From the NCBI RefSeq assembly GCF_008000895.1, contig NZ_CP042823.1, positions 744,001 through 808,000 on the forward strand: DNA of 64,000 nt. Reading direction: 5' to 3'. The notes beneath the pieces were generated by a model, which worked only from the letters and a program-made list of their open reading frames with translations, made no database searches and was not told where the DNA came from. This stretch comes from Methylobacterium sp. WL1. GTDB lineage: Bacteria > Pseudomonadota > Alphaproteobacteria > Rhizobiales > Beijerinckiaceae. A program made the translations under genes and the position numbers. Of this stretch, positions 1,768 to 13,406 are shown in pieces (position 1 is the stretch's first letter; each line of letters begins with the position of its first letter).

Positions 1768-2355
1768 ATGACCGAATCCAACCTCACCGTCGCCGTGATC
1801 GACCCGAGCCGCGCCCGCGCGGCGATCCTGGAGGAGGGCTTGCGCGCGGCCGGCATCGGTCGAATCGTGGTGATTCCCGATACCGTCGACCTTCTGGAAC
1901 GAGTGACCGCCCTCAAGCCCGACGTGGTGGTGATCCACCTCGAGAGCCCCAGCCGGGACATCCTGGAGCAGATGTCCGGGGTCTCTCGGCAAGTCGAGCG
2001 GCCGGTGGCGATGTTCGTCGACCGCTCGGACACCACCATGATGCAGGCGGCGGTCGACGCCGGCATCTCGGCCTACGTGGTCGACGGGCTGCGGGCGGAG
2101 CGGATCAAGTCGATCCTCGATATCGCGATCCTGCGCTTCAATGCCTTCGCGCGGCTCCAGCGCGAATTGTCGGAGGCCCGCGGCGAACTGGCCGACCGCA
2201 AGTTGATCGAGCGCGCGAAGGGCATCCTGATGAACTTGAAGGGGCTGACCGAGGACGAGGCCTACAAGCAGCTGCGACGCAAGGCCATGAACGAGAAGCG
2301 CAAGATCGCCGACATCGCCCGGGCCATCGTCACCACGGCGGACCTGCTCGGATGA
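1768..2355 (+). CDS. nasT: ANTAR-domain antitermination regulator NasT
   Basis: 195 residues. Residues 1-125 form a receiver-like domain and about 136-193 an ANTAR RNA-binding domain (ERAKGILMNLKGL then EDEAYKQLRRKAM), joined by a helix. NasT proteins bind tandem hexaloop hairpins in nitrate-assimilation leader RNAs and prevent termination; without nitrate or nitrite they are held by NasS. The position normally held by the phospho-accepting Asp at the end of beta-3 is His57 (VVVIHLESP), so control by NasS binding rather than phosphorylation is likely. The frame is open upstream to 1546, but the ATG at 1768 begins the receiver fold properly. It overlaps nasS by 4 nt (ATGA). A matching target leader lies at 4047-4146. 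Confidence 0.93.
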   Translation: MTESNLTVAVIDPSRARAAILEEGLRAAGIGRIVVIPDTVDLLERVTALKPDVVVIHLESPSRDILEQMSGVSRQVERPVAMFVDRSDTTMMQAAVDAGISAYVVDGLRAERIKSILDIAILRFNAFARLQRELSEARGELADRKLIERAKGILMNLKGLTEDEAYKQLRRKAMNEKRKIADIARAIVTTADLLG

Positions 2356-3365
2356 GGCTTCAGCTCGGCTACGTCCCGCTCTGCGATGCCGCGCCGCTGA
2401 TCGTGGCGCACGCGTTCGGCTTCGCCCGGGCCGAGGGACTGGAACTCGACCTTTCGGCAGAGCCGTCCTGGGCGACCCTGCGCGACCGCCTCGCGCTGGG
2501 CCATCTCGACGGCGCCCACATGCTGGCGCCGCTGGCGCTGGCGAGCCGGCTCGCCCTGTCGGGACCGCCCTCCGACCTCGTCGTCCCGCTGCAGCTCAGC
2601 GCCAACGGCAACGCCATCACGGTGTCGCGCGGGCTCTGGGCCGCGATGGGCCCGGCGAGCGAGGCCCTGACGGATGTGGCCCGGGCCTTCGCCCGGGTGG
2701 CGGTCGAGCGCCGGGACGCGGGCCAGCCGCTGACGCTCGGGACCGTGCATCCGTTCTCCTGCCACAGCTATCAGCTGCGGCTGTTCGCCGAGGCCGGCGG
2801 CCTCGACCCGTCGGCCTTCCGCACGGTCGTGGTTCCGCCCCAGCACAGCGTCGAGGCGCTCGCCCGCGGCCTGGTCGACGGCTATTGCGCGGGCGCGCCC
2901 TGGAACGACGTCGCGGTATCAGCCGGTCACGGGCGGATCGCGGCGCTCGGTTGCGACCTCGCACCGGACGCCCCCGAGAAGGTCCTGGCCGTGTCGGGCC
3001 GGCTCGACGACGCGCTGCTGCCCCTCGTCCGGGCGGTGGCGCGGGCCGGCCTATGGTGCGCCGACCCGGCCAACCGCACCGACCTGATCCATTGCCTGGC
3101 GCACCGGACCTATCTCGACCTCGACGTCGACCTCGTGGCCCGGGGCTTCGCGGGCGATGCGATCCTGGACGCGGCCGGCGCGACGCGGCCGATGCCGGGC
3201 CGTCTCGACCTCGGCGCCGACGTGCAGGAGCCGCGGCCCGAGGCCGCGCGGTGGCTCGTGACGCAGATGGCCGCCTCGCAGCAGTTACCGCCGGGGAGAC
3301 ACCCGGATGCCGAAGCGGCGGCCATCTACAGGCCCGACCTCTACCGGGCCGCGACAGCGCTCTGA
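2352..3365 (+). CDS. nasS: Nitrate/nitrite sensor NasS (NrtA/CmpA-like, cytoplasmic)
   Basis: 337 residues of the NrtA/CmpA/NasS substrate-binding fold, with no signal peptide, so it acts in the cytoplasm. Family landmarks are the opening LQLGYVPLCDAAPLIVA, the DGAHMLAPL segment and the GYCAGAPWND segment. In the studied systems (Azotobacter, Paracoccus, Bradyrhizobium) NasS binds NasT and releases it when nitrate or nitrite binds, allowing antitermination. The 4-nt overlap with nasT suggests translational coupling in fixed stoichiometry. No nitrate transporter genes follow it, so this copy is a sensor and not part of a transporter. Confidence 0.92.
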   Translation: MRLQLGYVPLCDAAPLIVAHAFGFARAEGLELDLSAEPSWATLRDRLALGHLDGAHMLAPLALASRLALSGPPSDLVVPLQLSANGNAITVSRGLWAAMGPASEALTDVARAFARVAVERRDAGQPLTLGTVHPFSCHSYQLRLFAEAGGLDPSAFRTVVVPPQHSVEALARGLVDGYCAGAPWNDVAVSAGHGRIAALGCDLAPDAPEKVLAVSGRLDDALLPLVRAVARAGLWCADPANRTDLIHCLAHRTYLDLDVDLVARGFAGDAILDAAGATRPMPGRLDLGADVQEPRPEAARWLVTQMAASQQLPPGRHPDAEAAAIYRPDLYRAATAL

Positions 3366-3674: not shown

Positions 3675-4019
3675 GATCCGAGTCGAACACGGCATGTAAT
3701 CCGATCCGATCGGCGTGTTCCTGTTTCTCCGTCTCACCGAGTAGAGGGAAGCAATCCGAGTTCGCTCTCGCTACGAGCGTATAGGGTTCCTCGATTGCTT
3801 CGCCGTGCTCGCAATGAGCGTGCAGTGCGATCCTGCTGCCGTCTGCGCTCGTGTTTGAAGGCAGCTCGGACGCCAGTTCCACTGCCACAGCGCTGATCGT
3901 TTAAGCGACCACCAGCCCACTTTTTGTGCAGTGCGATGCGATGCGCTCCGGCGTGCCAGGCCCCATGGGCCGCCGCGATTTCAAGCGTCATGACAACACC
4001 TTACCGATTCGGATCCTGC
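3675..4019. other. Intergenic control region upstream of the nitrate assimilation operon
   Basis: No gene is supported here, and base composition is lower in GC than the neighbouring genes. It contains a hairpin at 3685-3720 (GAACACG/CGTGTTC), a short palindromic repeat at 3794-3815, and two copies of the 12-mer GTGCAGTGCGAT at 3820-3831 and 3926-3937. The copies lie about 227 and 121 nt upstream of the predicted transcription start, within the range where enhancer-binding proteins such as NtrC sit. They do not match the NtrC consensus well. Confidence 0.4.
3794..3815. repeat. Short interspersed palindromic repeat (ATTGC...GCAAT type)
   Basis: ATTGCTTCGCCGTGCTCGCA followed by AT: outer arms ATTGC and GCAAT around an internal TTCG...CTC core. 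A relative is at 28687-28711 (TGCTTCGCTGCGCTCGCAATG). Elements of this kind are scattered between genes in many Hyphomicrobiales genomes; that statement is from general knowledge. Confidence 0.5.
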
Positions 4020-4020
4020 T

Positions 4021-4036
4021 TGGCATGAGATCTGCT
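4021..4036 (+). promoter_or_regulatory. Sigma-54-like promoter of the nitrate/nitrite assimilation operon
   Basis: TGGCATGAGATCTGCT matches TGGCACG-N4-TTGCW with two mismatches and the required 10-nt spacing between GG (4022-4023) and GC (4034-4035). Transcription is expected to begin near 4047, only a few nucleotides before the first leader hairpin at 4050. This agreement of promoter and RNA structure is the main support. Confidence 0.7.
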
Positions 4037-4046
4037 TGATAGCTCG

Positions 4047-4146
4047 CGTCCGTCAATGGCGACGGGCAGCGCCGTCAGCGAGGCCGCTGATCCGGTTCTC
4101 CTGCGGGTTCAAGCCTGCCCTGGGGGATAACCGGCAGCGGCTTTTT
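4047..4146 (+). ncRNA. ANTAR/NasT-type antitermination leader RNA
   Basis: Hairpin 1 spans 4050-4065: stem CCGTC/GACGG around the hexaloop AATGGC, which has A at position 1 and G at position 4 as described for ANTAR targets. Hairpin 2 spans 4075-4090: stem TCAGC/GCTGA around GAGGCC, with G at position 4 but G, not A, at position 1. The 3' arm of hairpin 2 is reused as the 5' arm of the terminator at 4083-4146, so the two structures exclude each other. NasT binding to hairpins 1 and 2 should therefore permit read-through into the reductase genes. The second loop deviates from consensus, which lowers certainty slightly. Confidence 0.75.
4083..4146 (+). terminator. Regulated intrinsic terminator in the nitrate assimilation leader
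   Basis: The 5' arm GCCGCTG (4083-4089), a 2-nt bulge and CCGGTT (4092-4097) pair with AACCGG (4129-4134) and CAGCGGC (4135-4141), followed at once by TTTTT (4142-4146). The apical part (4098-4128) may fold further. It lies 54 nt upstream of the first ATG, so termination here would block the operon. Confidence 0.75.
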
Positions 4147-4199
4147 CGTGGGCGGTCCGCCGACGATCCTGCAATCGAGGTCCCCGACGCGATCGAGAG

Positions 4200-5570: not shown

Positions 5571-7382
5571 ATGGCCGAGACCACCCCACAGACCGCCCCG
5601 GACGGCTTCAATCCCGAGCAGAAGCGCTATCTCGAAGGGTTCGCCTCCGGCGTGGCCGCGGCCCGCCTCACCGGCGGCCTCGCGATCGGGCAGGGCCCGC
5701 CGGCGCCGGCCGAGCCCACCGGGCCGGACGCGATCCACCTCAAGGCGCAGGACAAGACCGTCAAGGACGGCGGCAAGCTCTGCGAGCAAGAGAAGTGGAA
5801 GCGCGCCGAGCACCCGTTCGACGGCCATAACCGGCTGATCGCGGACGCCGCCGCCGGCAAGCCGCCCAAGCCCGAGGACAATTTCCGCTGGCGCTACCAC
5901 GGCCTGTTCTGGGTGGCGCCGAACCAGGTGAGCTACATGGCGCGCCTGCGGATCCCCAACGGCATCCTGCACCACTGGCAGTTCGCAGGCGTCGCCGACC
6001 TCGCCGACCGGCACGGCGGCGGCTACGTCCACGTGACGACCCGGGCCAACCTCCAGGTCCGCGAGATCGGCCCCGAACACGCCCAGCCGTTCCTCGACGG
6101 GCTGGTGGATATCGGCCTGACCGCCCGCGGCTCGGGCGCCGACAACATCCGCAACGTCACCGGCTCGTCGACCGCCGGCATCGACACCCAGGAGCTGCTG
6201 GATACGCGCCCGCTGGCGAAATCCTGGAACAACTGGATCATCAACGACCGCTCGCTCTACGGCCTGCCGCGCAAGTTCAACGTCGCCTTTGACGGCGGCG
6301 GCGTCATGCCGACCCTGGAGGAGACCAACGACATCGGCTTCCAGGCGATCGAGGTGCTGGACGGGGCCGCGGTGGCGGCGGGCGTCTACATGCGCCTCGT
6401 GCTCGGCGGCATCTCCGGCCACCGGGACCTCGCCCGCGACACCGGCATCGTGCTCAAGCCCGAAGACTGCAATGTGGTCGCGGACGCGATCATCCGGGTG
6501 TTCATCGAGAACGGCGACCGGACCAACCGCAACAAGAGCCGGATGAAGTACGTCCTCGACGCCTGGGGCTTCGACGCGTACCTCGCCGCCGTCGAGGAGA
6601 AGCTCGGCCGCAAGCTCGACCGGGTCGATCCGGCCCACGTGGCGCCGCGCCGGCCCACCGACCGGTTCGCCCATGTCGGCGTCCACGCCCAGAAGCAGCC
6701 CGGCCTCAACTGGATCGGCGTGGTCCTGCCGGTCGGCAAGATGACCAGCGACGAGGTCCGGGCGCTGGCCGAGATCGCCCGCGACTGCGGCGACGGCCAG
6801 ATCCGCCTCACCGTCTGGCAGAATTTCATCTTTTCCGGGGTCCCGGACGCGCGGGTGGCGGAGGTCGAGAGCCGTATCCTCGAACTCGGCCTGACCATCA
6901 AAGCGGCCGGCATCCGCTCGGGTCTCGTCGCCTGCACCGGCGCACGGGGCTGCAAGTTCGCCGCCTCCGACACCAAGGGTCACGCGCTGATCATCGCCGA
7001 CCACGTCGAGCGCACGGTGACGGAGCTCGACGTGCCGGTGAACGTCCACCTCACCGGCTGCCATCATTCCTGCGCCCAGCACTACATCGGCGACATCGGG
7101 CTGATCGGCGCAAAGGTGGTCGTCTCGGAGGAGGGAGACACCGTCGAGGGCTACGACATCGTGGTCGGCGGCGGCTTCGCCGAGAACCCGAAGATCGGCA
7201 CCGAGATCTGGAAGGCCGTGAAGGCCGAGGACGCGCCGTTCCGGGTCGAGGCGCTGCTGCGCACCTATCTGGCCCGCCGGCAAGGCCCGGACGAGAGCTT
7301 CCAATCCTTCACCGCCCGCACCGGCGCCGAAGCCCTGCGGGACGCCGCCGAGGAACAGCCCGCCCTGAAGGCCGCCGCATGA
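5571..7382 (+). CDS. nirA: Assimilatory nitrite reductase, siroheme/4Fe-4S type (NirA)
   Basis: 603 residues of the sulfite/nitrite reductase family, with two ferredoxin-like half domains and two siroheme/4Fe-4S domains. The cluster ligands are Cys455 and Cys461 (ACTGARGCKF) and Cys497 and Cys501 (CHHSC), the standard C-x5-C...C-x3-C arrangement. It performs the six-electron reduction of nitrite to ammonium in the cytoplasm. Plant and cyanobacterial NirA take electrons from ferredoxin; here the next gene, overlapping by 4 nt, encodes an NADPH flavoprotein with its own 4Fe-4S domain, which is the likely donor (inference). A purine-rich ribosome site (GGGAGG) precedes the ATG at 5571. Confidence 0.93.
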   Translation: MAETTPQTAPDGFNPEQKRYLEGFASGVAAARLTGGLAIGQGPPAPAEPTGPDAIHLKAQDKTVKDGGKLCEQEKWKRAEHPFDGHNRLIADAAAGKPPKPEDNFRWRYHGLFWVAPNQVSYMARLRIPNGILHHWQFAGVADLADRHGGGYVHVTTRANLQVREIGPEHAQPFLDGLVDIGLTARGSGADNIRNVTGSSTAGIDTQELLDTRPLAKSWNNWIINDRSLYGLPRKFNVAFDGGGVMPTLEETNDIGFQAIEVLDGAAVAAGVYMRLVLGGISGHRDLARDTGIVLKPEDCNVVADAIIRVFIENGDRTNRNKSRMKYVLDAWGFDAYLAAVEEKLGRKLDRVDPAHVAPRRPTDRFAHVGVHAQKQPGLNWIGVVLPVGKMTSDEVRALAEIARDCGDGQIRLTVWQNFIFSGVPDARVAEVESRILELGLTIKAAGIRSGLVACTGARGCKFAASDTKGHALIIADHVERTVTELDVPVNVHLTGCHHSCAQHYIGDIGLIGAKVVVSEEGDTVEGYDIVVGGGFAENPKIGTEIWKAVKAEDAPFRVEALLRTYLARRQGPDESFQSFTARTGAEALRDAAEEQPALKAAA

Positions 7383-8983
7383 CCCAGCACGTCTCGCCCC
7401 CCCTCGTCCTGATCCCCGAGACCGCCCCGTTCGACGCCGACCAGCGCTCGTGGCTCTCCGGCTACTTCGCCGCCCTGCTCGGCCCCGCCGTGACGGGAGC
7501 CACAGCCCTAGCGCCGGGCGAGGCCTCCGCCGCCGGCCCCAAGCTGGCCGACAACGACGACGCGCCCTGGCACGACCCCTCCGTGCCGATCGGCGACCGG
7601 ATGGCGATGGCCAAGGACCGGCCCGAGCCGCAGAAGCTCATGGCCGCCATGGCCCAGCAGGATTGCGGCCAGTGCGGCTACAACTGCGCCGACTACGCCA
7701 ACGCGATCTTCCTGAAGAACGAGGAGCGCCTGAATCTTTGCCAGCCCGGCGGCAAGGAGACCCTGCGCATGCTCAAGAAGCTGGACGAGGAATTCGGCAC
7801 CGCCGGCGGCGCGCCCGTGTCCCCGATGGCCGAGGGCGACACACCGAAGCAAACGGCCGATCTCGGCCCCCTGGGCTTCTGCCGCGAGAACCCGGTCGAG
7901 GCGCTGTTCCTGTCCCGCCGCCGACTCAACGAGCCGGGCGGCGAGAAGGAGACCTGGCACATCGAGATCGGCCTGGACGGCACGCCGATCACCTACGAGG
8001 CCGGCGATTCGCTCGGCCTGTTCCCGGCCAACGCCCCGGCTCTGGTGGACGCGGTGATCGCCGAACTCGGCGCCCGGCCCGAGCGGATGATCGGGACCCA
8101 GACCCTGCGCGACCACCTGCTCACGGACTACGCGCTCGGCGCCGCGCCGGACAACCTCTACCAGCTGCTGTCGCTGCTCACCTCGGGAGCGGCGCGCAAG
8201 AAGGCGCAGGCGCTGGCCTCGGGCGAGGACCCGGACGGGGACGCCGCCTATCTCGATGTGCTCGGCGCCCTGCACAAGTTCCCCGGCGCCCGGCCCGACG
8301 CGGAGGTCTTCTTGGAAGCTTTGGACGAGCTTCAACCGAGGCTCTACTCGATCTCGTCCTCGCCCAAGATGGATGCCGGCCGCGTCTCGCTGACCGTCGA
8401 TGCGGTGCGCTACAACCACCGCTCCCGGCTGCGGCTCGGCGTGGCCTCGACCCATCTCGGCGAGCGCCTGCCCGAGCAGACCAAGGTGAAGATCTACCTC
8501 CAGAAGGCCCACGGCTTCGCCCTGCCGGCGGACCTGTCCAAGGACGTGATCATGTGCGGCCCCGGCACCGGCATCGCGCCGTTCCGGTCGTTCCTGCGCG
8601 AGCGCGCCGCCACGAACGCCCCCGGCCGCAACTGGCTGTTCTACGGCCACCAGCGCCAGGCCACGGACTTCTTCTACAAGGACGAGCTCAACACGCTGAA
8701 GGACGACAAGGTGCTCAACCGCCTGTCGCTCGCCTGGTCCCGGGACGGCAGCGAGAAGACCTACGTCCAGGACCGGATGCGCGAGAACGGCGCCGACCTG
8801 TGGAAGTGGCTCGAAGGCGGCGCGCATTTCTACGTCTGCGGCGATGCCAAGCGCATGGCCAAGGACGTGGAGCGGGCGATCATCGACGTGGCGGCGCAGT
8901 TCGGGGGCAAGAGCCCCGAGGACGCGGTGGCGTATCTCGGCGCACTCAAGAAGGCTGGCCGCTACCAGGCCGACGTGTACTGA
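7379..8983 (+). CDS. 4Fe-4S / FAD / NADPH reductase (CysJ-like), electron donor for NirA
   Basis: 534 residues. Residues about 90-125 hold a C-x2-C-x3-C-x17-C motif (Cys96, 99, 103, 121; DCGQCGYNCADYA) like the single-cluster Fe-S domain of RnfB-type proteins. The rest is the FAD-plus-NADPH half of sulfite reductase alpha subunits: FAD motif RLYSISSSPK, NADPH motif GPGTGIAPFRSFLRER and a C-terminal aromatic (DVY) as in CysJ/CPR. The flavodoxin (FMN) domain of CysJ is absent and the Fe-S domain takes its place in the chain. The ATG overlaps the nirA stop by 4 nt, so the two are made together; oxidation of NADPH to feed nitrite reduction is inferred. Confidence 0.88.
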   Translation: MTQHVSPPLVLIPETAPFDADQRSWLSGYFAALLGPAVTGATALAPGEASAAGPKLADNDDAPWHDPSVPIGDRMAMAKDRPEPQKLMAAMAQQDCGQCGYNCADYANAIFLKNEERLNLCQPGGKETLRMLKKLDEEFGTAGGAPVSPMAEGDTPKQTADLGPLGFCRENPVEALFLSRRRLNEPGGEKETWHIEIGLDGTPITYEAGDSLGLFPANAPALVDAVIAELGARPERMIGTQTLRDHLLTDYALGAAPDNLYQLLSLLTSGAARKKAQALASGEDPDGDAAYLDVLGALHKFPGARPDAEVFLEALDELQPRLYSISSSPKMDAGRVSLTVDAVRYNHRSRLRLGVASTHLGERLPEQTKVKIYLQKAHGFALPADLSKDVIMCGPGTGIAPFRSFLRERAATNAPGRNWLFYGHQRQATDFFYKDELNTLKDDKVLNRLSLAWSRDGSEKTYVQDRMRENGADLWKWLEGGAHFYVCGDAKRMAKDVERAIIDVAAQFGGKSPEDAVAYLGALKKAGRYQADVY

Positions 8984-9076: not shown

Positions 9077-11773
9077 ATGACCCTGTCCGTGGCAGACCCG
9101 GCGGTGCGGACAACCTGCCCCTATTGCGGTGTCGGGTGCGGCGTTCTCGCGACCCCGGACGGGAACGGCGGCGCGGCGATCGCGGGCGATTCCGAGCACC
9201 CGGCCAATTTCGGCCGGCTCTGCTCGAAGGGCTCGGCACTCGGCGAGACCCTGTCGCTGGAGAACCGCCTGCTCCACCCGCAGGTCGATGGCGTCCAGGC
9301 CTCGTGGGACGCGGCGCTGTCGACCGTGTCGGAAAAACTGCGCGCGGTGGCCGAGGCGCACGGTCCGGAATCGATCGCGTTCTACCTCTCGGGGCAGCTT
9401 CTCACCGAGGATTACTACGTCGCCAACAAGCTGGCGAAGGGCTTCATCGGCACGCCGCATGTCGACACCAATTCGCGGCTCTGCATGTCGAGCGCGGTGG
9501 CGGCCCATCGCCGCGCCTTCGGCTCGGACACCGTACCGGGCTGCTACGAGGACTTGGACGAGGCCGACCTGATCGTCATGGTCGGGTCCAACGCCGCCTG
9601 GTGCCACCCGGTGCTGTTCCGCCGCATGGCCGACGCCAAGGCCCGTCGGGGCACCAAGTTCGTGGTGATCGACCCGCGCCGGACCCAGACCGGCCAGGAG
9701 GCCGACCTGTTCCTCGGGATCCGGCCCGGCAGCGACGTGGCGCTGTTCTCGGGGCTGCTCGTGCACCTTTCGGATAACGGCTTCCGCGACCGGGCCTTCG
9801 TGGAGGCCCACACCGCCGGGCTCGATGCCGCCCTGGATCGCGCCCGCCTCATCGCGCCGGACGTGGCGACGGTCGCCGCCGCGACGGGGGTACCGCTCGC
9901 CGACATCGCCGCCTTCTACGACCTGTTCGCGGGCACCCGCCGGGTGGTCACCGCCTTCTCGCAGGGTGTGAACCAGTCGGCCCAAGGGACCGACAAGGGC
10001 AACAGCATCATCAACTGCCACCTGATCACCGGCCGCATCGGCGAGACCGGGATGGGGCCGTTCTCGCTCACCGGCCAGCCCAACGCCATGGGCGGCCGCG
10101 AGGTCGGGGGTCTGGCCAACATGCTGGCCGCCCACATGCACTTCGCCCCCGAGGAGGTGGACCGGGTGCGCCGGTTCTGGGGTGCGCCCCGGATCGTCAC
10201 CGGCGAGGGCATGAAGGCGGTGGCCCTGTTCGAGGCGATCTGCCGGGGCAGGATCAAGGCCCTGTGGGTGATGGGCACCAACCCGCTGGTCTCGATGCCG
10301 CGGGCCGACGTGATCCGCGACGCCCTCGACGGGCTCGACCTCTACGTCGTCTCCGAGGTGATGGCCGATTCCGACACGGTGCGGGGTCTCGGCAAGACTA
10401 CGGTGCTGCTGCCCGCGCTCGCCTGGGGCGAGAAGGACGGCACGGTCACCAATTCCGAACGGCGGATCTCCCGGCAGCGCCGGTTCCTGGCGCCCCCAGG
10501 CGAGGCGCGGGCCGACTGGGCGGTGCTGTCCGACATCGGCCGCCGGCTCGGCCACGGCCGGGCCTTCGCGTTCGACTCCGCGGCGGCGGTGTTCCGCGAG
10601 CATGCCGGGCTCTCGGCCTACGAGAACAACGGCACCCGCGACTTCGATCTCGGCGCGCTCACCGACATCGGCGACGCCGCCTACGAGAGCGCCTTGCCGG
10701 TGCAATGGCCGATCCCGAAGCGCTCCGGCCCGCGGGGCGCGCCGCAGGGCAAGGCCCGGCTGTTCGGCGACGGGCGGTTCTACACCTTCGACCGGCGCGC
10801 CCGCTTCGTGGCGGTGCAGCCACCGGCCCTCGCGCAGGCGATCTCGGAGGCGTTCCCATTCGTGCTCAACACCGGCCGGGTGCGCGACCACTGGCACACG
10901 ATGACCCGCACCGGGAAAAGCCAGCGCCTCTCGGCGCACCGTGCCGTGCCGTTCGTCGAGGTGCATCCGGACGACGCGGCCGGCCTCGGCCTCACCGAGG
11001 GCGGCATCGCCCGCCTGTGGACCGAGCACGGCGAAGCCGAATTGGAGGTGATGGTCACGGACACGGTGGTACCGGGCTGCCTGTTCATGCCGATGCACTG
11101 GGGCAGCGCCCACGCGTCGAAGGCCCGGGTCGGGGCCCTGGTCCGCGGCGTGCCGGACCCGGTCTCGGGCCAGCCCGAGTTGAAGGCGACGCCTGTCGCC
11201 ATCGCGCCCGTCGCCTACCGGGCTCGGGGCTTCCTGCTGTCGCGCCGTCAGGTGGCGCTGCCGGAGGGCTGGTGGTGGGCGCGGGCGGCGATCACTGGCG
11301 GATGGGGCGTACAATTCGCCACCGCGGCCAGTTCCAGCGCCGTGGCGCTGATGGTCCGCGGGCTGATCCAGAGCGAGGCGCTCGCCGGCTACGAACTCGC
11401 CGAATACGCCGACCATGCCCGCGACCGCTACCGCTGCGCCGTCTACGACGGTGCGCGGCTGGTCGCGTGCCTCGCCTATGCCCCCGCGGAGGCCCGCCCG
11501 GACTGGGAAACGGCCAAGGCCCTGTTCGCCATCGAGGCCCCCGAGGCGGCCGAGCGCCGTGCCCTGCTCTCGGGCCGTGCCGCCACCGCGCCGGCCGGCC
11601 CGGTGGTCTGCGCCTGCCATGGGGTCGGTGCCGACGTGATCGCCGCGACCATCGCGGCGGGGGCCGGATCCGTCGCGGCGGTGGGCGCGGCCTGCAAGGC
11701 GGGCACGAATTGCGGCTCCTGCATCCCCGAGATCCGCAAGATGCTCCCCGGCCAGACTGCCCGCGCCGCATGA
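9077..11773 (+). CDS. nasA: Assimilatory nitrate reductase catalytic subunit NasA
   Basis: 898 residues of the molybdopterin-bisMGD oxidoreductase family. An N-terminal 4Fe-4S site is formed by Cys14, Cys17, Cys21 and Cys49 (TCPYCGVGCGVL...CSKG); Mo-cofactor domains follow through about residue 690 (including NSRLCMSSAV and GPFSLTGQPNAMGGREVGG). At about 840-890 there is a BFD-like 2Fe-2S domain with Cys845, Cys847, Cys879 and Cys882. It reduces nitrate to nitrite in the cytoplasm; no Tat signal is present. Electrons probably come from the FAD reductase encoded at 4200-5468 through the BFD tail (inference). It is separated from the upstream gene by a palindromic element, so it may have its own promoter. 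Confidence 0.93.
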   Translation: MTLSVADPAVRTTCPYCGVGCGVLATPDGNGGAAIAGDSEHPANFGRLCSKGSALGETLSLENRLLHPQVDGVQASWDAALSTVSEKLRAVAEAHGPESIAFYLSGQLLTEDYYVANKLAKGFIGTPHVDTNSRLCMSSAVAAHRRAFGSDTVPGCYEDLDEADLIVMVGSNAAWCHPVLFRRMADAKARRGTKFVVIDPRRTQTGQEADLFLGIRPGSDVALFSGLLVHLSDNGFRDRAFVEAHTAGLDAALDRARLIAPDVATVAAATGVPLADIAAFYDLFAGTRRVVTAFSQGVNQSAQGTDKGNSIINCHLITGRIGETGMGPFSLTGQPNAMGGREVGGLANMLAAHMHFAPEEVDRVRRFWGAPRIVTGEGMKAVALFEAICRGRIKALWVMGTNPLVSMPRADVIRDALDGLDLYVVSEVMADSDTVRGLGKTTVLLPALAWGEKDGTVTNSERRISRQRRFLAPPGEARADWAVLSDIGRRLGHGRAFAFDSAAAVFREHAGLSAYENNGTRDFDLGALTDIGDAAYESALPVQWPIPKRSGPRGAPQGKARLFGDGRFYTFDRRARFVAVQPPALAQAISEAFPFVLNTGRVRDHWHTMTRTGKSQRLSAHRAVPFVEVHPDDAAGLGLTEGGIARLWTEHGEAELEVMVTDTVVPGCLFMPMHWGSAHASKARVGALVRGVPDPVSGQPELKATPVAIAPVAYRARGFLLSRRQVALPEGWWWARAAITGGWGVQFATAASSSAVALMVRGLIQSEALAGYELAEYADHARDRYRCAVYDGARLVACLAYAPAEARPDWETAKALFAIEAPEAAERRALLSGRAATAPAGPVVCACHGVGADVIAATIAAGAGSVAAVGAACKAGTNCGSCIPEIRKMLPGQTARAA

Positions 11774-11927: not shown

Positions 11928-13406
11928 GTGACCGACACCCCAAGCCTCCTGCGCGCGGCCCGCGCACCCCGCGAGACCCAATCCGCCGGCCTGGAGCCGC
12001 TGGCGGTGCTGCCGGTGTTCGTGCCCCTGCGAGGCAAGCGGGTGGTGCTCGCCGGATCCTCGGGCGGGGCGCCTTGGAAGGTGAAGGTCCTGGCCGCCGC
12101 AGGCGCCCATGTCGACGTCTACGCGCCGCAGCCCAGCGACGAGCTCCGTGCGGTGCCGGACGAGATCGTCGACGGCAGCGTGGCCCTTCACGAGCGCGCC
12201 TGGACACTCGACGACCTCTGGGGGGCCGCCTTCTGCATCGGCGCCATGGAGGACGAGGCCGACTGCGTCGCCTTCGTAGTCGCGGCCCGCGGCGCCGGCG
12301 CGATCGTCAACGCGGTGGACCGGCCGCACCTGTGCGACGTCAAGTTCGGCGCCATCGTCAACCGCTCGCCCCTGGTCGTCGGCATCTCCACGGAGGGCGC
12401 GGCGCCGGTCTTCGGCCAGACCGTGCGCGCCCGGATCGAGGCGATGCTGCCGCGCGGGTTCAGTCGCTGGGTCGGGGCCGCCCGCGACTGGCGGGACGGC
12501 GTCACCGCCCGGTTCCACGGGTTCAGTGAGCGACGCAGCTTCTGGGAACGCTTCACCGATCGCGCCTTCGCGGAGCCGGACCGCGCTCCGACGCAACAGG
12601 ACCTCGCCGAGCTGCTGGGGGAGACCGAGGTGGCGCCGAAGGGCGGCGCGGTGAGCCTCGTCGGCGCCGGTCCGGGCGACGCGGAGCTGCTCACGCTCAA
12701 GGCCCTGCGGGCGCTGCGCAACGCCGACGTGATCCTGTACGACGACCTCGTCGCCCCCGAGATCCTGGACTATGCCCGCCGGGAGGCGCGGACCATGCTG
12801 GTCGGCAAGACCGGTCACGGCCCGTCCTGCCGCCAGGACGACATCAACGCGCTGATGGTTCAGCTGGCCCGCACCGGCAAGCAGGTGGTGCGGCTGAAAT
12901 CCGGCGATCCGCTGGTGTTCGGCCGGGCCGGCGAGGAGATCGATGCCTGCCGGGCTGCGGGCATTCCCGTCACCGTGGTGCCGGGCATCTCGGCCGCGCA
13001 GGGGGCCGCGGCCGCGCTGGGCCTGTCGCTGACCCACCGCGACGCTGCCCGCCGTCTGCAATTCGTCACCGGCCACGACCGCCGCGGCGCCCTGCCGGAC
13101 GACCTGAACTGGGGTGCCCTCGCCGATCCGAGCGTCACCACGGTGGTCTACATGCCCAAGCGCACGCTCCGCGCGCTGCTGGCCCGGGCCGTGGACGAGG
13201 GGCTGGCGCCCGCGACCCCGGCGCTCCTCGTCTTCAACGTCAGCCGCCCGAACCAGGCCTCGCTGCGCGGCACCGCCGCCGACCTTGCCGACCGGGTCGA
13301 GGCTGCGGGCCTCGACGGGCCCGCGCTGCTGATGGTCGGCGAGGCCTTTTCGGAGACGCGGGCGGCGGTGGCCCCCGAGACGGTGCCGGAGCGTTTGGCG
13401 ATCTGA
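11928..13406 (+). CDS. cysG: Siroheme synthase CysG (uroporphyrinogen methyltransferase plus precorrin-2 oxidase/chelatase)
   Basis: 492 residues. Residues about 28-225 are the precorrin-2 dehydrogenase/ferrochelatase half and about 240-475 the SAM-dependent uroporphyrinogen III methyltransferase (SLVGAGPGDAELLTL, VVRLKSGDPLVFGRAGEE, VVPGISAAQGAAA). It supplies siroheme to NirA. Two oddities lie in the N-terminal half: the NAD-binding loop reads AGSSGGAP instead of GGG-type, and the segment equivalent to the conserved I-D-R-S-P reads IVNRSP, with Asn145 where Met8p/CysG have the catalytic Asp. The start is GTG (11928). Its place after nasA fits the pathway. Confidence 0.92.
   Translation: MTDTPSLLRAARAPRETQSAGLEPLAVLPVFVPLRGKRVVLAGSSGGAPWKVKVLAAAGAHVDVYAPQPSDELRAVPDEIVDGSVALHERAWTLDDLWGAAFCIGAMEDEADCVAFVVAARGAGAIVNAVDRPHLCDVKFGAIVNRSPLVVGISTEGAAPVFGQTVRARIEAMLPRGFSRWVGAARDWRDGVTARFHGFSERRSFWERFTDRAFAEPDRAPTQQDLAELLGETEVAPKGGAVSLVGAGPGDAELLTLKALRALRNADVILYDDLVAPEILDYARREARTMLVGKTGHGPSCRQDDINALMVQLARTGKQVVRLKSGDPLVFGRAGEEIDACRAAGIPVTVVPGISAAQGAAAALGLSLTHRDAARRLQFVTGHDRRGALPDDLNWGALADPSVTTVVYMPKRTLRALLARAVDEGLAPATPALLVFNVSRPNQASLRGTAADLADRVEAAGLDGPALLMVGEAFSETRAAVAPETVPERLAI

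What the first reader, a model, noticed from the sequence alone, without database searches (positions are those of the whole stretch)
4047..4146. Nitrate assimilation leader in which an ANTAR-type hairpin and a terminator exclude each other
Seen directly: stem CCGTC/GACGG with hexaloop AATGGC (4050-4065), stem TCAGC/GCTGA (4075-4090), and a terminator whose 5' arm GCCGCTG (4083-4089) overlaps the second stem and pairs with CAGCGGC before TTTTT. Known: ANTAR proteins bind paired hexaloop hairpins with A1 and G4 and block termination. Inferred: NasT encoded 2.3 kb upstream binds here. The second loop (GAGGCC) has G rather than A at position 1, which may define a variant of the recognition rule.
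Basis: partly seen in the sequence, partly recalled or inferred. Interest (0 to 1): 0.8.

Follow-up and report, generated by a model that had tools for sequence, protein, structure and literature searches.

The report
Nitrate-operon RNA switch, altered second loop
The start of this nitrate-assimilation operon's messenger RNA carries a two-hairpin on/off switch of a known type, but one hairpin loop has a base that departs from the published rule and is shared by dozens of related bacteria, which makes the rule testable.

Summary
Between nasS and a nirB-like gene lie P1 (loop AATGGC, 4055-4060), P2 (loop GAGGCC, 4080-4085) and a terminator whose 5' arm is the P2 loop end plus the P2 3' strand. 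The pattern occurs once in the window and in 0 of 150 random 64-kb sequences. Relatives are Methylobacterium; 110 of 111 genus genomes carry such a leader, and leaders of other Hyphomicrobiales show compensatory stem changes. The kind is known: NasS/NasT antitermination through an ANTAR dual-hexaloop attenuator.

Not standard is G at position 1 of the P2 loop. In Methylobacterium it is in 43 of 45 leaders that precede nirB and 0 of 64 that precede nrtA. It recurs in P2 in three other families and in P1 elsewhere; in the terminator-bearing leaders tallied it is never in both loops, and no pyrimidine occurs. G1 would allow cross-loop pairing, which a published proposal says A1 prevents (PMC8934654). 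NasT binding, the start site and the effect of G1 are untested.

The parts
1768..2355 (+). nasT: REC + ANTAR antiterminator, 195 aa
   Evidence: Pfam ANTAR 8.2e-20; REC weak, 28.8 bits against a 30.2 cut-off; PDB relatives 1s8n (putative antiterminator), EutV 6wsh/6ww6, NasR 4akk, AmiR 1qo0
2352..3365 (+). nasS: nitrate/nitrite-binding sensor partner of NasT, 337 aa, overlaps the nasT stop
   Evidence: Pfam NMT1_2 3.7e-58; the NasS role is inferred from synteny and the literature
3924..3930 (+). TTGTGCA element 123 nt upstream of the predicted +1, possible activator site
   Evidence: TTGTGCA 30-220 nt upstream of P1 in 76 of 100 genus leaders, 68 of the 76 at 120-126 nt; protein unknown
4021..4036 (+). 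sigma-54 promoter TGGCATGAGATCTGCT (GG 4022-4023, GC 4034-4035); predicted +1 at 4047
   Evidence: such an element 20-24 nt upstream of the P1 loop in 36 of 36 genus leaders; +1 inferred from the -24/-12 geometry
4048..4067 (+). P1 hairpin, 7 bp, hexaloop AATGGC (A1, G4)
   Evidence: covariation
4068..4073 (+). linker AGCGCC
   Evidence: invariant at 5 of 6 columns in the 43 G1 leaders
4074..4091 (+). P2 hairpin (antiterminator), 6 bp, hexaloop GAGGCC (G1, G4)
   Evidence: 5' strand and loop positions 2-5 do not vary in the 43 G1 leaders; -9.2 kcal/mol as 7 bp plus tetraloop, -7.0 as hexaloop
4083..4146 (+). intrinsic terminator: GCCGCTG..CCGGTT / AACCGG..CAGCGGC then TTTTT; 5' arm shared with P2
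4200..5468 (+). nirB-like FAD/NAD reductase (N-terminal NirB part only, 422 aa), first gene after the leader
   Evidence: TIGR02374 382.7 bits, below its 578 cut-off, model positions 1-382 of 794
5571..7382 (+). nirA-family nitrite reductase
   Evidence: NF007126 1024 bits, cut-off 523
7379..8983 (+). flavoprotein reductase (sulfite reductase alpha type)
   Evidence: NF004859 907 bits, cut-off 432
9077..11773 (+). molybdopterin reductase, likely assimilatory nitrate reductase, with a C-terminal BFD-like domain
   Evidence: Pfam; NasC-type NF047855 399 bits, below its 1100 cut-off, and formate dehydrogenase alpha scores slightly higher (435, cut-off 666), so the name rests on context
11928..13406 (+). 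cysG siroheme synthase
   Evidence: NF007922 508.8 bits, cut-off 400

Best explanation
This is a nitrate-responsive transcription attenuator of the ANTAR type. A sigma-54 promoter starts the RNA at about 4047, so P1 is the first thing made. Without nitrate, NasS holds NasT, the P2 3' strand goes into the terminator and transcription stops at 4142-4146. With nitrate or nitrite, freed NasT binds P1 and then P2, P2 stays closed, the terminator cannot form, and nirB-nirA-flavoprotein-nitrate reductase-cysG is transcribed. Here and in many related genomes the P2 loop starts with G, which by energy rules can pair across the loop and make P2 more stable on its own. Shown: anatomy, conservation, covariation outside the genus, promoter-like element at a fixed place. 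Inferred: start site, NasT binding, read-through, effect of G1.
For: Single exact pattern, 0 of 150 random sequences. nasT-nasS directly upstream. Leader in 110 of 111 genus genomes; the miss is a 70%-complete assembly. In 27 other leaders of related families: 5 pairs and 15 cells changed on both sides, 1 of 500 and 0 of 500 shuffles as high. Sigma-54 element in 36 of 36 genus leaders and 31 of 39 outside leaders. The EutV RNA-contact residues named in PMC8934654 are the same or K/R in NasT. The P2 5' strand, which the terminator does not need, does not vary in 43 G1 leaders. NasT binds the nasA leader RNA in Paracoccus (PMC3795266), and mutating hairpin HI there abolishes growth on nitrate (PMC5424462); passages seen.
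Against: No RNA, binding or expression data for this organism. P2 lacks A1, a defining base of the motif. Within the genus the stems hardly vary: 1 pair with a two-sided change, 188 of 500 shuffles as high. Stem pairing was among the criteria by which the sites used were picked. In Paracoccus the second-hairpin mutation had little effect under nitrate (PMC5424462), so the role of P2 in binding may differ. 8 of 39 outside leaders lack the sigma-54 match within 80 nt.
Confidence: 0.88

Rival explanations
1. NasT contacts only P1 where P2 has G1. P2 then folds as a 7-bp stem with an AGGC tetraloop (or a G1-C5 pseudotriloop) and works as an antiterminator by its own stability once NasT on P1 gives it time.
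For: G1 gives P2 -9.2 against -7.0 kcal/mol for A1 versions with the same stem. In the EutV work a single hexaloop is the minimal target and Met172 may exclude tetraloops (PMC8934654). In Paracoccus the HI mutation is severe and the HII mutation is not (PMC5424462).
Against: A2 and G3 do not vary in the 43 G1 leaders, more than a bare stem needs; G4-C5-C6 also serve the terminator, so their constancy says little. In other families the G lies in P1 with A1 in P2.
Confidence: 0.35
2. G1 is a neutral or nearly neutral substitution; a purine at position 1 is enough.
For: G1 goes with similar NasT sequences (17 genomes at 90-100% identity have G1, 19 at 81-86% have A1; with the leaders). Only A or G is seen at position 1 of the terminator-bearing leaders tallied. 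NasT shows no matching change at an RNA-contact residue.
Against: Loop positions 2-5 and the P2 5' strand are constant in the 43 G1 leaders while the terminator apex has 41 distinct 42-mers and P1 12 forms, so drift is not free in this loop. This does not test position 1 itself, which defines the set; there the test is 17 of 17 and 43 of 45.
Confidence: 0.4
3. A constitutive terminator ending the nasTS transcript, with the hairpins incidental.
For: It lies downstream of nasS on the same strand.
Against: A sigma-54 element at a fixed distance between nasS and P1. P1, linker and P2 5' strand are conserved though the terminator does not need them. A similar sigma-54/P1/P2 unit stands before nrtA at another locus in the five genomes read.
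Confidence: 0.03

Closest known systems
Paracoccus denitrificans nasA leader controlled by NasS-NasT (PMC3795266, PMC5424462)
   Same: nasTS directly upstream, two leader hairpins, nitrate-assimilation operon
   Different: The passages seen give no loop sequences; here the P1-P2-terminator overlap, a sigma-54 element at P1 and G1 in P2 are read from sequence
Enterococcus faecalis eutP leader with EutV (PMC3369931, PMC8934654)
   Same: two hexaloop hairpins, G4 in both, short linker (5-12 nt among eut leaders, 6 here), P2 overlaps the terminator
   Different: both eutP loops have A1; here P2 has G1. EutV is controlled by phosphorylation; NasT is reported to be held by NasS (PMC3795266)
Klebsiella oxytoca nasF leader with NasR (PMC7496416, PMC3369936)
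   Same: nitrate assimilation, P1/P2/terminator logic; Ntr control reported (PMC5424462)
   Different: NasR joins a nitrate-sensing NIT domain to ANTAR; here sensor and antiterminator are two proteins. SELEX with NasR preferred A1 and G4
Bradyrhizobium diazoefficiens nirA and nosR leaders with NasT (PMC6759348)
   Same: NasT-interaction hairpin predicted before an assimilatory nitrite reductase gene; NasT acts on the nosR leader
   Different: loop sequences are in a supplementary figure that I could not read
Predicted actinobacterial ANTAR RNAs (PMC8164766)
   Same: A1 and G4 are stated there to be more than 50% conserved, so departures from A1 are already predicted
   Different: only few reside upstream of a terminator; no lineage-wide G1 described in the passages seen

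Membership tests
ANTAR dual-hexaloop antiterminator RNA | two small stem-loops with six-base loops and C-G closing pairs | tested here: met
   but P2 is predicted to fold best with a G1-C6 pair and a four-base loop
ANTAR dual-hexaloop antiterminator RNA | G at loop position 4 in both loops | tested here: met
   AATGGC and GAGGCC
ANTAR dual-hexaloop antiterminator RNA | A at loop position 1 in both loops | tested here: not met
   P1 has A, P2 has G; G in P2 of 43 of 109 genus leaders. Filed as a variant, not as a standard member
ANTAR dual-hexaloop antiterminator RNA | P2 overlaps and excludes an intrinsic terminator | tested here: met
   shared bases 4083-4089; the fold with P1 and P2 forced has no such terminator
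ANTAR dual-hexaloop antiterminator RNA | stems kept by compensatory change | tested here: met
   outside the genus; weak inside it
ANTAR dual-hexaloop antiterminator RNA | binds an ANTAR protein | not testable with these tools
   no binding data
NasS-NasT nitrate regulatory pair | ANTAR protein without its own sensor domain next to an NMT1-type binding protein | tested here: met
NasS-NasT nitrate regulatory pair | nitrate/nitrite dissociates the complex | not testable with these tools
   known for Paracoccus (PMC3795266)

The most novel reading that the evidence does not exclude
G1 loops are a distinct, selected form of the ANTAR target: G1 pairs across the loop (with C5 as a pseudotriloop or C6 as a tetraloop), NasT is recruited at the A1 loop, and the G1 hairpin is held largely by RNA stability. 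The rule would then be one A1 hexaloop plus one self-stabilised G4 hairpin, reached independently in several families.
Probability: 0.3. Interest if true: 0.55.

Novelty: new variant of a known kind. Interest (0 to 1): 0.4.

Why it matters
ANTAR targets have been searched for with a rule of A1 and G4 in both loops (PMC3369931). The EutV-RNA paper found no specific protein contact to A1 and proposed that A1 is kept to stop cross-loop pairing (PMC8934654, passages). Here 43 Methylobacterium genomes have a G that could make that very pairing, next to sister genomes with A at the same base and similar NasT (81-86% identical where compared), which is a ready test of that proposal. If G1 works, searches that demand A1 miss real sites.

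Tried and rejected
Within-genus covariation: too little variation to decide, so outside leaders were used. MAFFT put P1 out of register when genus and outside leaders were aligned together (A6); that alignment was dropped, and pairs were counted on A7 and on a hand-registered set. R1 aligned outside leaders badly (A5); not used. R2 does not find the window's own leader, since it models the outside type. A co-change in NasT with G1: among 30 NasT compared only residue 157 separates the two groups (L/M/V/I against A/R), not an EutV contact site, so no adaptation is claimed. G1 as a consequence of losing nrtABC from the operon: in the 36 genomes first read the two go together, but two A1 genomes (G537, G532) also have nirB next, so the gene order does not force G1. 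One origin of G1 in the genus: the NasT tree of 30 genus proteins needs 2 changes, 24% of bootstrap trees need 1; not resolved. A second own-genome target: R1 gives one strong hit, the next at E 0.09. A dual hexaloop at the second ANTAR locus: none convincing (R1's best there is 13.2 bits). The tally gave a small bonus to A or G at P2 position 1; it was repeated without it. That run lost L069 and L116 of 74 and read L134 in a wrong register (GCAGAG in place of AGAGCT). The forced-fold means (terminator favoured by 5.9 kcal/mol in 43 G1, 7.7 in 57 A1 leaders) include A1 leaders cut at a wrong T-run, at least G007, so only the single-hairpin energies are used. Both Rfam searches gave no match. 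The promoter match counted was also a bonus in its parser, so that 100 of 100 leans high; one search had no such bonus.

Full report
What is there. The sequence between nasS and the nirB-like gene was read directly. P1 is GTCCGTC[AATGGC]GACGGGC (4048-4067), the linker AGCGCC, P2 GTCAGC[GAGGCC]GCTGAT (4074-4091). The terminator is GCCGCTG-AT-CCGGTT (4083-4097) with AACCGGCAGCGGC (4129-4141) and TTTTT (4142-4146). Loop positions 4-6 and the 3' strand of P2 are the terminator's 5' arm, so P2 and the terminator exclude each other. The free fold has P1 and the terminator, -68.6 kcal/mol for 4030-4160, z -3.28. The full pattern occurs once in the window and never in 150 first-order Markov sequences of the same length.

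Surroundings. The gene before the leader is NasS-like (NMT1_2), and before it a REC+ANTAR protein, related by sequence to the PDB entries 1s8n, EutV, NasR and AmiR. After the leader come a NirB N-terminal-like reductase, a NirA-family nitrite reductase, a flavoprotein, a molybdopterin reductase with a BFD-like domain and CysG. The genome has one other ANTAR gene, next to a urea-type binding protein and a nitrilase-like gene, an AmiC/AmiR-like locus.

Promoter. In all 36 genus leaders first read, a sigma-54 element (GG and GC at the standard spacing, score 14 or 15 on my scale) lies 20-24 nt before the P1 loop. In the window GG is 4022-4023 and GC 4034-4035, which by the usual -24/-12 geometry (recalled) puts +1 at 4047. 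The 100 genus leaders parsed have a TGGC[AG][CT] match in that place, a looser criterion that the parser also favoured. Of 39 leaders outside the genus, 31 have the element at score 14 or more within 80 nt; 8 do not (L068, L071, L074, L102, L103, L104, L106, L152). In 28 of the 31 it lies 36-57 nt from the P1 loop, in 3 (L112, L138, L146) 22 nt. In several an extra hairpin fills the gap.

Conservation. A strong nasT match was found in 36 of 37 same-genus genomes, the window's own counted (G013 has only a weak one). A covariance model of 36 genus leaders (R1) finds a leader in 110 of 111 genus genomes at E <= 0.001; the miss is 70% complete. Where the fetched stretch reaches far enough, nasS is upstream in 53 of 55 genomes (36 of 36 and 17 of 19); for the other 55 too little was fetched to tell. 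In the own genome R1 gives one hit at 3.5e-13, the next at 0.09. Inside the genus only one pair shows a two-sided change. In 27 leaders outside the genus, 93.5% of cells pair, against 87.8% in shuffles, with 15 two-sided cells against 2.8 (0 of 500 shuffles). On a hand-registered set of 73 sites, 49 distinct, 461 of 490 cells pair against 358 +- 6 in shuffles. Stem pairing was part of how sites were picked, so percentages lean high; the two-sided changes are the stronger evidence. R2, from the 27, hits 28 of 150 genomes of the order and 13 of 337 of the class at E <= 0.01.

Loop position 1 in Methylobacterium. Of 110 genus genomes with an R1 hit, 109 have as best hit a leader of the window's type: 43 with G1 in P2 (GAGGCC 41, GAGGCT 2) and 66 with A1 (57, 8, G525). 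All 43 G1 leaders precede nirB; of the 66 A1 leaders 64 precede the nitrate-transporter gene nrtA and 2 (G537, G532) precede nirB. So G1 is in 43 of 45 leaders before nirB and 0 of 64 before nrtA. The remaining genome, G013, has a leader of the second type (see noticed), also before nrtA and with A1. By another grouping, all 17 genomes whose NasT is 90-100% identical to the window's have G1 and all 19 at 81-86% have A1. In the 43 G1 leaders the P2 5' strand and loop positions 2-5 do not vary, P1 has 12 forms, and the terminator apex has 41 distinct 42-mers. The P2 5' strand is not part of the terminator, so its constancy speaks for P2 itself.

Elsewhere. Of 43 loci read, 2 could not be parsed, 6 had no terminator and 35 did. 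In these 35, position 1 is A in 64 loops and G in 6: P1 in L182 (GACGAC), L198 (GTCGAT), L209 (GATGGC), P2 in L184 (GATGCC), L191 (GAAGCC), L199 (GACGCC). These are six different families. L194, of the same genus as L199, has A1, so G1 there looks derived. R2 was built from A1-rich leaders, so G1 is likely under-counted. Rhodoplanes (L102) has GACGCT in P1. No tallied leader with a terminator has G1 in both loops or a pyrimidine at position 1; among those without a terminator L188 (P2) and L220 (P1) were read with a pyrimidine, and L192 has no G4 in its P1 loop as read. The leaders of Rhizobium, Agrobacterium and Microvirga, which look different, are not in these tallies. L069, with a possible G1 in P1 and a poor P2, is unresolved.

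What G1 may do. With G1 the P2 hairpin folds best as 7 bp with an AGGC tetraloop, -9.2 kcal/mol, against -7.0 for A1 with the same stem. Position 5 is C in all four P2-G1 groups, so a G1-C5 pseudotriloop is also possible. The EutV-RNA paper reports that A1 makes no specific contact, that G4 stacks on Tyr164, and suggests that A1 may prevent pseudotriloops (PMC8934654, passages). By the alignment the EutV contacts Lys143, Lys147, Tyr164, Arg168, Met172, Asn173, Arg175, Arg177 fall on K145, R149, Y166, R170, M174, N175, K177, K179 of NasT. The mapping is mine; K145, R170, M174 and N175 are invariant and Y166, K179 at least 90% conserved in the 22-sequence alignment, R149 and K177 less. Only residue 157 separates NasT of G1 and A1 genomes among the 30 compared. 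So either NasT accepts G1 as it is, or it does not need to touch P2 in these genomes.

What is known. NasT binding to the nasA leader and the NasS-NasT release by nitrate are known in Paracoccus (PMC3795266, PMC5424462; passages). The dual-hexaloop rule is from Ramesh 2012 (PMC3369931; passages), and NasR SELEX agrees with A1/G4 (PMC7496416; passages). NasT hairpins were predicted before Bradyrhizobium nirA (PMC6759348; passages). Actinobacterial ANTAR RNAs are stated to keep A1 and G4 at more than 50% (PMC8164766; passages), so departures from A1 are predicted there. A sigma-54 survey lists promoters of nitrate transporter, nitrite reductase and ANTAR/NasT genes in Pseudomonadota (PMC12316311; passages). 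The listings of seven searches showed me no paper on this leader in Methylobacterium or on a lineage-wide G1; I saw the top rows only (15 of 169, 15 of 437 and 10 of 36), supplementary files could not be read, and most subscription papers, among them the Azotobacter NasT paper, are not held.

Verdict. The finding is real and correctly read. The switch is of a known kind. The G1 loop is a real, lineage-wide and recurrent variant, whose meaning is open but easy to test.

Noticed in passing
L306, L307, L308, L309, L310: Five G1 genomes carry a second sigma-54/P1/P2 leader before an nrtA at another locus, with A1 in P2 (loops AACGCC, ACCGCC, AGCGCC) but without a clear U-run, so perhaps not an intrinsic terminator. 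16 of 111 genomes have a second R1 hit; only these five were read.
   Followed up: partly
own genome, G000: The window's lineage seems to have lost nrtA: of 17 G1 genomes searched, 9, the window's among them, have no close nrtA match and 8 do. A NarK-like protein, 241 bits against a cut-off of 311.7, is at G000:C2:3153930.
   Followed up: partly
window 4061-4076: An alternative hairpin GACGG[GCAGCG]CCGTC, again a hexaloop with G4, pairs the P1 3' strand with linker and P2 5' strand and would exclude both.
   Followed up: no
L105, L109, L116, L179, L180: In several leaders outside Methylobacterium an extra hairpin, often GGCCC..GGGYC, lies between the sigma-54 element and P1; in L179 and L180 its loop is ANTAR-like (AAAGTC, AACGAT).
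   Followed up: no
L050, L051, L053, L055, L058, L060 and others: Some Methylobacterium and Methylorubrum leaders have GCC[AACGNN]GAC in P1, a C-A mismatch in the second pair from the loop in place of U-A.
   Followed up: no
window 3924-3930: TTGTGCA, part of a palindrome-like element in some relatives, 120-126 nt upstream of P1 in 68 of the 76 (of 100) leaders that have it; its protein is unknown.
   Followed up: partly
L075:5514-8308: Second ANTAR gene of the genome, beside a urea-type binding protein and a nitrilase-like gene (AmiC/AmiR-like); no convincing dual hexaloop nearby.
   Followed up: partly
L112, L114, L121, L124, L138, L146, L147, L158: Rhizobium, Agrobacterium, Microvirga and related leaders after nasS show hairpins such as GGTC[AACGGC]GATC, long linkers and a second hairpin of another type before a GCGGCGTTT-like 3' arm.
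   Followed up: no
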